Positions 35,435 through 38,965 of a stretch of DNA of 38,965 nt are shown piece after piece. The stretch's first letter is position 1. Each line of letters opens with the position of its first letter. A program made the position numbers and the translations under genes. The notes under the pieces are model-generated. The model ran no database searches and was not told the origin of the DNA. It saw only the letters and a program-made list of their open reading frames with translations. Where the stretch lies: contig DAHUYL010000041.1 in NCBI GenBank assembly GCA_027315255.1, forward strand, positions 1 to 38,965. Reading direction: 5' to 3'. This DNA is from Solirubrobacterales bacterium. Lineage in GTDB: Bacteria > Actinomycetota > Thermoleophilia > Solirubrobacterales > Solirubrobacteraceae.

Positions 35435-36546
35435 GCCGTGGCGGGGTGCTGCTGACGGGCGCCACCGGCTTCGTCGGGATGGAGGTGCTCGCGCGCTACC
35501 TCGAGCACAGCGATCGTACGGTCAGCTGCCTGATCCGCGCCCCGAGCGACGATCGCGCCCGCCAGCGACTCGACGAGGTCATTCGCAACCTGTTCGGCCG
35601 TGGCGCCGACCGCTACGCAGCCCGGGTGGCTGCCTACGCGGCCGATCTGACCGCCCCCGGCCTCGGGCTGAGCCCGCACAGACGCGACCGGCTCGCCGAG
35701 TCCGTGACCACGATCGTCCACAGCGCCGCGTCGATCTCGTTCGTGCTGCCGCTCGAGGAGGCGCGCGAGATCAACGTCGGCGGGACCCGCAGGATGCTCG
35801 AGTTCGCGCAGCTGGCCCAGGCGCGCGGCGGCCTGCACCGCTACGGCCAGGTGTCGACCGCGTTCGTAGCGGGCACGCACGACGGCCGCTTCGCCGAGGG
35901 GGACCTCGAGGTCGGCCAGGGCTTCCGGAATTCCTACGAGCAGTCGAAGTTCGAGGCCGAGCAACTCGTCCGCTCGCACGACGAGCTGCCGTGGACGATC
36001 CTGCGCCCCAGCATCGTCGTCGGCGACCGCCGCAGTGGCTGGACCGCCGCCTTCAACGTGCTGTACTGGCCGCTGCGCGCGTTCTCGAGCGGTCTGTTCA
36101 AGACTGTTCCGGCGAACCTGGCGGCTCCGCTCGACGTCGTCTCGATCGACTTCGTCGCCGACGCGATCCACGAGCTGTGCGAATGCGACGAGGGGGTCGG
36201 GGGGACGTTCCATCTGACCGCCGGGCCGGAGGCCACGACGATGGGCGAGATCGCCGCCGCCGCGTGCCGCTACTTCCGCCGGCCGCTGCCGGAGGTCGTC
36301 TCCCCGTCGGAGTTCCAGCCGGCCGACGCCCGGCTGTCCGCTGCGGCGCTCGAGTCGAGCAGCATCTACTTCCCCTATTTCTCGATCGCGACCGTGTTCG
36401 ACAACGCGTTGACCCGGGCCCGGCTCGGTCGCGCCGGAATTCAAGCCTCGCCGCTCGGCGACTACCTCGAGCGGCTGCTCGACTTCGCGACCCGCAGCCG
36501 CTGGGGCAAGCGCCCGATCGCGCGGGCGGAAGCGCTGTTGCGGTGA
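35431..36546 (+). CDS. Thioester-reductase-like extended SDR (NAD_binding_4 family)
   Basis: 371 residues from ATG 35431, with GGGAG upstream. LLTGATGFVGMEVLARYLEH gives the nucleotide-binding glycine motif, IVHSAASISFVLPLEEAREI NVGGT fits the NAD_binding_4/Male-sterility group, and YEQSK (about residue 170) is the catalytic Tyr-x-x-x-Lys, followed by WTILRPSIVVGDRRSGWTAA. The family reduces acyl-CoA or acyl-ACP thioesters to aldehydes or alcohols, as in fatty acyl-CoA reductases and terminal domains of NRPS/PKS. In this operon it could release the chain made by the KAS III enzyme (inference). Other NAD-dependent epimerase-like roles cannot be excluded. Its stop overlaps the next GTG. Confidence 0.85.
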   Translation: MSRGGVLLTGATGFVGMEVLARYLEHSDRTVSCLIRAPSDDRARQRLDEVIRNLFGRGADRYAARVAAYAADLTAPGLGLSPHRRDRLAESVTTIVHSAASISFVLPLEEAREINVGGTRRMLEFAQLAQARGGLHRYGQVSTAFVAGTHDGRFAEGDLEVGQGFRNSYEQSKFEAEQLVRSHDELPWTILRPSIVVGDRRSGWTAAFNVLYWPLRAFSSGLFKTVPANLAAPLDVVSIDFVADAIHELCECDEGVGGTFHLTAGPEATTMGEIAAAACRYFRRPLPEVVSPSEFQPADARLSAAALESSSIYFPYFSIATVFDNALTRARLGRAGIQASPLGDYLERLLDFATRSRWGKRPIARAEALLR

Positions 36547-36794
36547 GCGGCGAGCAGCGCCTGCGGATGGCGATGCTGGCCGACACCGCCAGGTTCCGGC
36601 CCGACGATCCCGACGAGCTCGTCGAGGCGGCGTTCGCGTGTCCGATCTGCCTCCACGCGGACCGCGTCAGGCGCGAGGCTGCGCTCGACAGCTACGACCC
36701 GTGGTGCGAGTGCCACTGCCCCGCATGCGACGAGCGCTGGCGCGTCTACCTGGCGCCGCAGCAGGCGCTGCGCCTCAGCGTGCTCCATCATTAG
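36543..36794 (+). CDS. Small zinc-ribbon-like protein
   Basis: 83 residues from GTG 36543, which overlaps the reductase stop (GTGA). A CPIC pair (Cys33, Cys36) and a CECHCPAC cluster (Cys55, 57, 59, 62) could form a four-cysteine zinc site with extra ligands. Helical MLADTARFRPDDPDELVEAA precedes it and WRVYLAPQQALRLSVLHH follows. No family is recognised. Position in the operon suggests a structural or regulatory partner of the lipid enzymes or the kinase. It ends 7 bp before the histidine kinase. Confidence 0.75.
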   Translation: MSGEQRLRMAMLADTARFRPDDPDELVEAAFACPICLHADRVRREAALDSYDPWCECHCPACDERWRVYLAPQQALRLSVLHH

Positions 36795-36801
36795 CGCTTC
36801 C

Positions 36802-37932
36802 ATGAGTGCGGTTGACCTGGGCGACCGGGCCGGTGCCGTCTCGATCGAGGCGCTCGAGCTGTTCGTCGCGGTGCTGTCGCAGTCGGAGACGAGCGAGTCG
36901 GCCGGCGAGGACTTCTACGACCGGCTGTGCGGCGCCGTCTGCAGGCTTGCGCGGATGCGCCGCGCGCTGATCTTCCGATACGACCCGGCGACGCGGCGAG
37001 TGCGCGCAGCCGGCGGCCACGCGATCGACGTCGGCGCGTTCGCCGGCGCGCATGTCACCGTCGAGTCGGCGCCGATCGCCGCGGAAGCGCTGCGCACCGA
37101 TTCGGTGGTGGAGGCCGCAGGCGACCTGCGGGACCAGTTTCCGCCCGAGTACGCCGCCCTCGTCGACGCGCCGATGCGGCTCGTGTGCGCGCCGATGCAG
37201 GCGGCCGGCCGGGCCGTCGGCGCGATCCTCGCCGATCGCACGCTGGATGCGCCGCCGCTCGACGCGGCCGAGCGCCACCTGCTGTGGACGCTCGGGAAGG
37301 CGGCCGCGCTCGCCTCGGTGGCGCGGTTCGTAGCGACCGAGGCCGAGTCCTCCAAGCAATTGCAGCAGCGGCTCGACCTCGCGCGCGAGATCCATGAGCG
37401 CGTGATCCAGCGGCTGTTCGGCGTATCGATGGCGCTCGACGGCGACGGCGAGTTGCCGGCCGACGCTCGGGCTCGCTGCGCGAGCGAGACCCAGACGGCG
37501 CTCGCCGATCTGCGCGAGGCGCTGCAACGACCACTCGGGCGCGCGCCACGGGCTACCGGCACGACCTTCATGGCCGAGGTCGAGCGGCTCTCGCATGCGC
37601 ATCCCGACCTGGGCGTCACGCTCGAGGCCGGCAGCCATGGAGACGTGCCGCCGTCGCTCGAGCCGCTCGCGCAGAGCGTCCTGCGCGAGGCCGTCCGCAA
37701 CGCGCAGAAGCACGCCCGTCCGACCGCCGTGCGGGTGCGGACCGAGCGGCTCGACGGTGCGCTCGTGCTCGAAGTGGTCAACGACGGCGTCTCCGGGGCG
37801 CCGCGGCGCGCCGGGATGGGGCTGCGGCTGGCGGCTTTCGAGGCGCTCCAGTCCGGCGGCGTCGTCGAGTTCGGCGTGCGCGAGCCGGGGACTTGGCAGG
37901 TGCGGTTGGTAGTGCCGTGCGGGGACGCGTGA
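36802..37932 (+). CDS. Cytoplasmic GAF-domain sensor histidine kinase (NarL-type pair)
   Basis: 376 residues from ATG 36802. A GAF-like sensor occupies about 20-175 (LCGAVCRLARMRRALIFRYD, MRLVCAPMQAAGRAVGAILA). The HisKA_3 box is RLDLAREIHERVIQRLFGVS with phosphoacceptor His198. The HATPase domain keeps the N-box SVLREAVRNAQKHARPTAVR (Asn300), VVNDGVSG and a short GMGLRLAAFEAL G-box. No transmembrane segment is seen, so it senses an internal cue such as a small ligand, light or redox state. The partner response regulator follows after a 42-bp palindrome. Kinase and regulator lie in the lipid-enzyme operon. Confidence 0.9.
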   Translation: MSAVDLGDRAGAVSIEALELFVAVLSQSETSESAGEDFYDRLCGAVCRLARMRRALIFRYDPATRRVRAAGGHAIDVGAFAGAHVTVESAPIAAEALRTDSVVEAAGDLRDQFPPEYAALVDAPMRLVCAPMQAAGRAVGAILADRTLDAPPLDAAERHLLWTLGKAAALASVARFVATEAESSKQLQQRLDLAREIHERVIQRLFGVSMALDGDGELPADARARCASETQTALADLREALQRPLGRAPRATGTTFMAEVERLSHAHPDLGVTLEAGSHGDVPPSLEPLAQSVLREAVRNAQKHARPTAVRVRTERLDGALVLEVVNDGVSGAPRRAGMGLRLAAFEALQSGGVVEFGVREPGTWQVRLVVPCGDA

Positions 37933-37952
37933 ACGTGTGATGTCGGCCGGAG

Positions 37953-37994
37953 CGATGGGCCTTATGCCGCCTATAGGCGGCATAAGGCCCATCG
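37953..37994. promoter_or_regulatory. 42-bp perfect palindrome before the response regulator start
   Basis: Arms of 21 bp, starting CGATGGGCCTTATGCCGCCT and mirrored exactly with no spacer, centred on the CTATAG at 37971-37976. It ends 6 bp before the ATG at 38001, and only ATCGCG remains between, with no Shine-Dalgarno. It could be a dimer/tetramer binding site for the response regulator itself, or an RNA stem uncoupling regulator from kinase expression. A terminator is less likely because there is no U-tract. Confidence 0.88.
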
Positions 37995-38000
37995 ATCGCG

Positions 38001-38618
38001 ATGGCTGAGCCGCTGCGCAGCCCGCAGCGGCTACGCGTGCTCGTCGTCGACGACCACGACGTCGTCCACTGGGGGTTCCGGCTGATGCTGACCCAGCAGC
38101 CGTGGGTCGAGCGGTGCGTCGCGGCCTCGACCGGGGACGAGGCACTGGAGCTCGCCGGCCGCTACCGGCCGCACGTCGCGATCGTCGACCTGTTCATCGG
38201 CGAGGAGTCCGGTGCCGAGGTGTGCGCGCGGCTGCGGGCGGCCGAGCCCGCCACCCGCGTGCTCCTGTTCTCGGGTGCGGGCGCGATCTCGCCGCATGCA
38301 GCGCGTGCGGCCGGCGCCTCGGGCTTCGCCTACAAGGACTGGCCGGCGCAGAAGATCGCGGCCGCGGTGCGGCACGTCGCCCTCGGCGGCACCGTGTTCG
38401 AGCGCCAGGACTCGACCGGCGCGCTCGGCCTGTCCGATCGCGAGCGCGAGGTGCTCTCGCTGATGGCGGCGGGCTCGACCAACCCGGAGATCGCCGCGGC
38501 GCTGCACCTGTCCAAGCACACCGTCAAGGAGCACACCTCGTCCGTCTATCGCAAGCTCGGGGTGCGCAACCGGACCGAGGCGGTTCAGCGCGCCCAGCGG
38601 CTCGGCCTGCTCGCCTGA
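38001..38618 (+). CDS. NarL/FixJ-type response regulator
   Basis: 205 residues from ATG 38001. REC domain: VLVVDDHD (acidic pocket Asp17/18), phosphoacceptor Asp63 in IVDLFIG, LFSGAG with the conserved Ser, and Lys112 in AYKDW. The C-terminal LuxR-type helix-turn-helix starts at LSDREREVLSLMAAGSTNPE, with IAAALHLSKHTVKEHTSSVY as recognition region. Phosphorylated by the preceding kinase, it should dimerise and bind DNA; the long palindrome just upstream is an obvious candidate site. Target genes probably include this operon (inference). Confidence 0.94.
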   Translation: MAEPLRSPQRLRVLVVDDHDVVHWGFRLMLTQQPWVERCVAASTGDEALELAGRYRPHVAIVDLFIGEESGAEVCARLRAAEPATRVLLFSGAGAISPHAARAAGASGFAYKDWPAQKIAAAVRHVALGGTVFERQDSTGALGLSDREREVLSLMAAGSTNPEIAAALHLSKHTVKEHTSSVYRKLGVRNRTEAVQRAQRLGLLA

Positions 38619-38683
38619 CGTCCGCAGTCCCTTGGATGGTGCTCGGGCCCGAGCTCGCGGCGTTCTCAGCCCTCGATGACCGG

Positions 38684-38965
38684 TCAGTGGATGCGGCCGT
38701 CCTCGCCCAGCTCGAAGCCTCGGAGCCCGAAGCGGTCGGCCAGCAGCTCGGGGATCGCCTCGCGGGGGGGCTGCGACAGGTCCGTGGTGCCCGGGGAGAG
38801 CTTGCGCAGCTCGAGCGGGCCGGTCCAGTCGCTGATCGCCTCGCGCGTGCCGTCGGGATGGTTGACGCTCGCGATCAGGCCGAACACGAACGGCGAGGAG
38901 GGGTGGGTGCTGGCCCACCAGTTGCTCGTCTCGATGTCAACCGGAGGGACCGGCTCGGGGACGAA
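38684..38965 (-). CDS. C-terminal part of an unknown protein, cut by right window edge
   Basis: Open from the edge to the TGA at 38684, giving 93 residues beginning FVPEPVPPVDIETSNWWAST, with PFVFGLIASVNHPDGTREAI and LADRFGLRGFELGEDGRIH at the end. Trp/Pro-rich and acidic, without a recognised domain; it reads like the end of a soluble enzyme. It converges on the response regulator gene, with a 65-bp gap that includes a GCTCGGGCCCGAGC palindrome (38641-38654). Confidence 0.65.
   Translation of the reverse strand, partial: FVPEPVPPVDIETSNWWASTHPSSPFVFGLIASVNHPDGTREAISDWTGPLELRKLSPGTTDLSQPPREAIPELLADRFGLRGFELGEDGRIH

What the first reader, a model, noticed from the sequence alone, without database searches (positions are those of the whole stretch)
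37933..38003. 42-bp perfect palindrome six bases before the response regulator start
A 21-bp-arm palindrome without any mismatch is exceptional. Its position replaces the ribosome binding site, so it could be an autoregulatory operator, an RNA lock on translation, or a mobile repeat.
Basis: partly seen in the sequence, partly recalled or inferred. Interest (0 to 1): 0.65.

Follow-up and report, generated by a model that had tools for sequence, protein, structure and literature searches.

The report
Dispersed palindromic repeat between two genes
The perfect 42-base palindrome is real, but it is one copy of a small hairpin-forming DNA repeat scattered through this soil bacterium and its relatives, which landed between a sensor gene and its regulator gene and pushed apart two genes that normally overlap.

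Summary
The palindrome is real. 37953-37994 is a perfect 21+21 bp palindrome that ends 6 bases before the response-regulator ATG. Chance expectation is about 5e-7 per window.

It is not a dedicated operator or riboswitch. At least seven other copies lie in the same genome on seven other contigs, near the 3' ends of unrelated genes or inside a gene. In about 23 relatives with a readable junction no palindrome is present, and in most the regulator's start overlaps the kinase's stop by 8-14 nt. Only here does a 68-nt spacer with the palindrome separate them. A second copy likewise interrupts the C-terminus of an HD-domain gene that is intact in relatives.

The element is 48 bp: 24-bp arms, a TATA centre and a near-invariant G·A mismatch three pairs from the end. 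Cognate families occur across Solirubrobacterales. Each genome has its own stem sequence, and both arms change together. Some copies lie in frame in pabB, purQ, pxpC and dienoyl-CoA reductase genes.

Best reading: a REP/RPE-like non-autonomous palindromic repeat, new to this order, untagged and with no linked transposase found. At this locus it ended start/stop overlap and put a strong hairpin between kinase and regulator. The expression effect is inferred.

The parts
37953..37994 (.). perfect 42-bp palindrome (21-bp arms)
37950..37997 (+). 48-bp repeat element: 24-bp arms, TATA centre, G-A mismatch at the third pair from the ends (GAGCG...CGATC)
   Evidence: copies aligned; pairing profile drops sharply beyond 24 bp from the centre
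37933..38000 (+). 68-nt spacer between kinase stop and regulator start; in most readable relatives the genes overlap by 8-14 nt
36802..37932 (+). GAF-domain sensor histidine kinase (376 aa), upstream gene
   Evidence: orthologues
38001..38618 (+). NarL/LuxR-type response regulator (205 aa), downstream gene

Best explanation
The palindrome is one copy of a dispersed, non-autonomous, hairpin-forming palindromic repeat (REP/RPE-like), about 48 bp long, that is spread through this Solirubrobacterales genome and, as genome-specific variant families, through other members of the order. SHOWN by sequence comparison: several copies at unrelated loci; absence of the element from the orthologous site in relatives, with one further locus consistent; arms that co-vary within a copy; preference for gene 3' ends; some copies in frame inside genes. 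INFERRED: it spreads by an unidentified enzyme or by recombination, and its arms stay perfectly matched through selection for the hairpin or template-switch correction between arms. INFERRED consequence here: the insertion ended the start/stop overlap (translational coupling) of kinase and response regulator, and the transcript carries a hairpin of about 21 bp between them. This most likely lowers or decouples regulator synthesis relative to the kinase, or protects the upstream mRNA as proposed for E. coli REPs.
For: Eight copies on eight contigs of the own genome. Empty site: readable junctions in about 23 relatives lack the palindrome, and most start the regulator 8-14 nt before the kinase stop, whereas the window has +68 nt. 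Second locus: the YhaM-like HD-domain protein ends GxLEHG... in relatives, but in this genome a stop plus the element follow GFLE directly. Covariation: 8 of 21 pairs with changes on both sides in 7 copies and 18 of 21 in 17 copies, covariation score 0.558 against 0.186 in shuffles and at most 0.135 in slid controls. Sibling families in 15 of 201 genomes of the order, each with its own inner stem. Named carriers are Solirubrobacterales/Thermoleophilia MAGs. 32 of 52 non-internal copies lie within 60 nt of a gene 3' end against 14 near a 5' end.
Against: No mobilising enzyme found: no Y1 (RAYT/IS200) transposase in the genome; those in relatives are not flanked by the palindrome; no solitary arm outside full copies except one chance coding match (read). 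No clear target-site duplication seen by eye. Copy number is low (about 8) for a REP family, although the genome is 92% complete in 231 contigs and only part of the candidates were scored. About 30 bp of the roughly 78-bp net insertion at this junction is not part of the repeat and is unexplained.
Confidence: 0.82

Rival explanations
1. Bidirectional transcription terminators of the long-stem 'I-shaped' actinobacterial type without a U-tract, kept by selection at gene 3' ends.
For: Most non-internal copies lie near gene 3' ends, 15 between convergent genes; unrelated actinobacteria also have long palindromes with similar outer arms.
Against: Independent terminators would not share a 48-bp sequence within a genome; 14 of 66 copies lie well inside genes; the window copy lies between two genes whose products work together; no U-tract.
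Confidence: 0.22
2. Operator of a DNA-binding regulator (for example this NarL-type regulator), with the copies forming a regulon.
For: Perfect dyad; position next to a response regulator; genome-specific inner sequence as expected for a coevolving binding protein.
Against: Copies lie at gene 3' ends and inside coding sequence; absent at the orthologous kinase-regulator junction in relatives; perfect pairing over 20-24 bp per arm exceeds what a dimer usually reads.
Confidence: 0.06
3. A cis RNA hairpin selected at this junction to regulate translation of the response regulator (RNA lock or re-initiation bridge).
For: Strong hairpin ending 6 nt upstream of the start codon; folding would bring kinase stop and regulator start close together.
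Against: The same sequence occurs at seven unrelated places; no relative has the palindrome here; no Rfam match.
Confidence: 0.12
4. The palindromes arise and are perfected in place by replication template switching (quasipalindrome correction), with little or no transposition.
For: Outer arms of copies in one genome differ from copy to copy but pair within each copy (G024, 18th position from the centre: pairing 0.8, identity between copies 0.2). Same gene sites in two or three species carry different but well-paired stems. Template switching is reported to create and maintain RNA hairpins (PMC8794818, title and start of abstract only).
Against: Does not explain the shared 48-bp sequence at unrelated loci in one genome; spread is needed as well.
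Confidence: 0.25

Closest known systems
REP elements (GTAG and CGTC super-families, Di Nocera et al. 2013, PMC3733652)
   Same: Dispersed short palindromes, genome-specific stems with alternative complementary residues, mostly between codirectional or convergent genes and downstream of coding regions, some inside genes; P. aeruginosa GTAG-24 even has an unpaired G/A in all copies. CGTC REPs too lack a dedicated transposase.
   Different: Stem 20-24 bp against 6-13 bp for GTAG families, no GTAG or CGTC tag, about 8 copies in this genome, no RAYT; Actinobacteria are not mentioned in that survey.
Rickettsia palindromic elements (RPE)
   Same: Palindromic repeats lying in frame inside protein-coding genes.
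   Different: RPEs are about 150 bp according to the review PMC10969869; this element is 48 or 51 bp, and no sequence kinship was shown. A clean in-frame insertion could not be shown here, because element-coded stretches lie in loops of variable length.
Coding palindromes of nematomorph mitochondria (PMC6649704, abstract)
   Same: Perfect inverted repeats inside genes that still code for protein.
   Different: Those are up to 284 bp, mitochondrial, and in conserved protein regions; these are 48-51 bp, dispersed repeats in variable loops.

Membership tests
REP element | short palindrome repeated at many unrelated loci of one genome | tested here: met
   8 copies in the own genome, about 7 in several others
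REP element | GTAG or CGTC tag, unpaired, at one end | tested here: not met
   copy alignments show no unpaired GTAG or CGTC; ends are GAGCG...CGATC
REP element | associated RAYT (Y1) transposase flanked by the repeats | tested here: not met
   no PF01797 in G000; Y1 genes in six relatives are not flanked by the palindrome
REP element | predominantly at gene 3' ends, few between divergent genes | tested here: met
   32 of 52 within 60 nt of a 3' end; 20 codirectional, 15 convergent, 5 divergent; own simple gene caller
Rickettsia palindromic element | in-frame insertion in protein-coding genes | tested here: inconclusive
   14 of 66 copies internal and without stops, in purQ, pxpC, dienoyl-CoA reductase and pabB homologues, but no clean 16-17 residue insertion against relatives
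MITE | terminal inverted repeats shared with an autonomous IS, and target-site duplication | tested here: not met
   no arm outside full copies in G000 apart from one coding match; no duplication seen by eye in the flanks
Intrinsic terminator | GC hairpin followed by a U-tract | tested here: not met
   sequence after the stem is ATCGCG
Known structured RNA (Rfam) | match to a covariance model | tested here: not met
   no match up to E = 1 at 36500-38965

The most novel reading that the evidence does not exclude
A Solirubrobacterales-wide family of palindromic elements whose positions persist between species, including in-frame sites in enzymes, while the stem sequence is rewritten in both arms together to a genome-specific form. 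That would be concerted evolution by conversion among copies or template switching, with an as yet unknown mobilising activity.
Probability: 0.3. Interest if true: 0.68.

Novelty: new variant of a known kind. Interest (0 to 1): 0.47.

Why it matters
REP-like repeats are best known from Proteobacteria, and the 2013 survey read here does not mention Actinobacteria. A long-stem, untagged family across Solirubrobacterales with no linked transposase found, some copies inside enzyme genes, and co-varying arms at the same sites in different species gives a natural system for asking how palindromic repeats spread and stay perfect. For this locus it shows how an insertion can rewire a two-component operon by ending its start/stop overlap.

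Tried and rejected
RAYT association: no Y1 transposase in the genome; those in relatives carry no flanking palindrome. Parent IS with the same ends: single-arm search gave only the known copies plus one coding-sequence chance match. Exact 28-bp core in other genomes: none. Viral origin: no match of the own-family core in viral contigs. Rfam: none. Target-site duplication: none evident by eye in the flanks. GU against AC mismatches on the coding strand as an RNA test: 6 against 4 in 16 copies, uninformative; an earlier count was spoiled by wrong register for odd-length centres and is not used. In-frame insertion proof against solved structures and relatives: element-coded stretches fall in variable loops, no clean 16-17 residue gap. 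Outer arms alone as a sign of kinship outside the order: many actinobacterial palindromes match the pattern, so not used. Structure prediction was not used: nothing to gain here.

Full report
OBSERVATION. The sequence at 37953-37994 reads CGATGGGCCTTATGCCGCCTA|TAGGCGGCATAAGGCCCATCG, a perfect palindrome with 21-bp arms (inverted-repeat scan). Six bases separate it from the ATG at 38001. It stands alone in the window: the next longest perfect palindrome has 9-bp arms, Markov sequences of the same composition reach at most 14, and the expected number with arms of 21 or more is 4.9e-7. The upstream gene 36802-37932 is a GAF/HATPase sensor kinase and the downstream gene 38001-38618 a GerE/Response_reg regulator.

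IT IS A REPEAT. A search of the own genome (G000, 4.3 Mb, 231 contigs, 92% complete) with the spacer found further copies on C4, C132, C113, C83 and C204. A covariance model built from them plus one copy in a relative (R1) added C19 and C72, giving eight copies in all. Genes next to or around the copies are unrelated: an HD-domain/YhaM-like gene, a pabB-like gene, the kinase-regulator pair and others. Copies are 48 bp: arm pairing is near complete out to 24 bp from the centre and falls to background beyond. Seven of the eight carry a mismatch (G-A, or its complement when read on the other strand) at the third pair from the end (0 of 7 copies in the profile pair there; the eighth, on C204, pairs there).

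IT WAS INSERTED HERE. The kinase has orthologues in all 27 genus relatives searched. Where both genes could be read on one contig, no relative has a palindrome at the junction. In most, the regulator start lies 8-14 nt inside the kinase gene; the more distant pairs overlap by 1 or 4 nt, and one relative (G009) has a +29 nt arrangement. In the window the start lies 68 nt after the stop. Counting from the conserved VVP codons to the regulator ATG, about 4 nt in close relatives has become 82 nt, a net gain of about 78 bp, of which 48 are the element; the other 30 or so are unexplained. A second copy (C4) tells the same story: in about 20 relatives the HD-domain protein ends ...LEHG plus a short tail, whereas in G000 the reading frame stops at LE-TAG and the element starts at the next base.

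RELATIVES. Genus genomes G041, G024, G012, G014 and G004 have their own palindromes of the same architecture with different inner stems. Model R2 (17 sequences) shows 18 of 21 pairs with changes on both sides, covariation score 0.558 against 0.186 in shuffles and at most 0.135 with slid partners. In an order-wide sample of 201 genomes, 15 have significant matches, in 6 of 51 genera, up to seven or more copies each; the sequences are listed from loci fetched. Copies in one family of the order have a 3-nt longer middle. A pattern scan of public genomes gave the names: Solirubrobacterales bacterium 70-9, Solirubrobacterales isolate palsa_465 (its contig of 23,076 bases matches G001:C113), Thermoleophilia bacterium 5_8_m_bin24, Actinomycetota SZAS-9/-10/-15.

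POSITION. By a simple codon-usage gene caller, 14 of 66 copies lie well inside genes. Of the other 52, 32 are within 60 nt of a gene 3' end and 14 within 60 nt of a 5' end. Including edge cases, contexts were 20 codirectional, 15 convergent, 5 divergent, 19 overlapping a gene and 7 undecided. In the own genome seven of eight are at 3' ends and one is in a pabB-like gene. Internal copies are in frame without stops, in homologues of PurQ, 2,4-dienoyl-CoA reductase, PxpC/allophanate hydrolase subunit 2 and aminodeoxychorismate synthase. They sit in loops of variable length, and neither solved structures nor relatives show a clean 16-17 residue insertion, so insertion versus replacement is open.

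ARMS EVOLVE TOGETHER. In several genomes the outer stem differs from copy to copy but pairs within each copy: in G024 the 18th position from the centre pairs in 80% of copies and is identical between copies in only 20%; G017 shows the same over positions 18-25. The same site of pxpC in G017, G005 and G024, and of dienoyl-CoA reductase in G017 and G024, carries a palindrome in each species, with different stems and both arms changed (the inner stem of pxpC is shared by G017 and G005 and differs in G024). Either positions are inherited and stems rewritten, or the same spot was hit repeatedly. Template switching in replication is reported to create and maintain hairpins (PMC8794818; start of abstract only).

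MECHANISM. Shown: dispersed repeat, absence from orthologous sites, structure kept by paired changes. Inferred: spread by an unknown activity. No Y1 transposase was found in G000, those in six relatives are not flanked by palindromes, no IS-like single arms occur in G000, and the own-family core is not in viral contigs. Inferred effect at this locus: loss of start/stop overlap plus a stable hairpin should separate regulator from kinase synthesis; direction and size are unknown.

COMPARISON. It works like a REP element or, for intragenic copies, like Rickettsia palindromic elements. It fails the REP tag and RAYT criteria and has longer stems than the families in PMC3733652, so it is filed as a REP-like variant, not as a member of a named family. 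Searches of the open-access library for such repeats in Solirubrobacter or Actinobacteria found nothing relevant; most subscription papers are not held.

CAVEATS.

Noticed in passing
L317:2406-2498, L319:1863-1955, L323:1365-1457 (genus relatives): A selenocysteine tRNA gene lies next to the 3' end of the YhaM-like HD-domain gene in several relatives; ARAGORN finds none in the corresponding stretch of the own genome (L312), where the palindromic element sits after the gene.
   Followed up: partly
L108:940-1060 (G017:C216): Two palindromes of different stem subfamilies (CCAAAGGCACACC and CCAAATACATGCC) stand 62 bp apart, like a REP heterodimer.
   Followed up: no
L106, L098, L023 (pxpC); L109, L117 (dienoyl-CoA reductase): Same gene site in two or three species carries an in-frame palindrome with a different stem in different species, both arms changed.
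   Followed up: partly
window 37950-37997 and the other copies in the own genome: Near-invariant G-A mismatch three pairs from the end gives the copies an orientation; 6 of 7 asymmetric copies have the same orientation relative to the gene they follow or lie in (read by eye; not significant alone).
   Followed up: partly
window 37915-37949: About 30 bp of non-repeat sequence between the end of the conserved kinase C-terminus and the element has no counterpart in relatives.
   Followed up: no
L147, L192, L199, L208 (Streptomyces): Similar long palindromes CGATGGGCCGCTTYCCGTAC...GTACGGRAAGCGGCCCATCG recur in four Streptomyces genomes.
   Followed up: no
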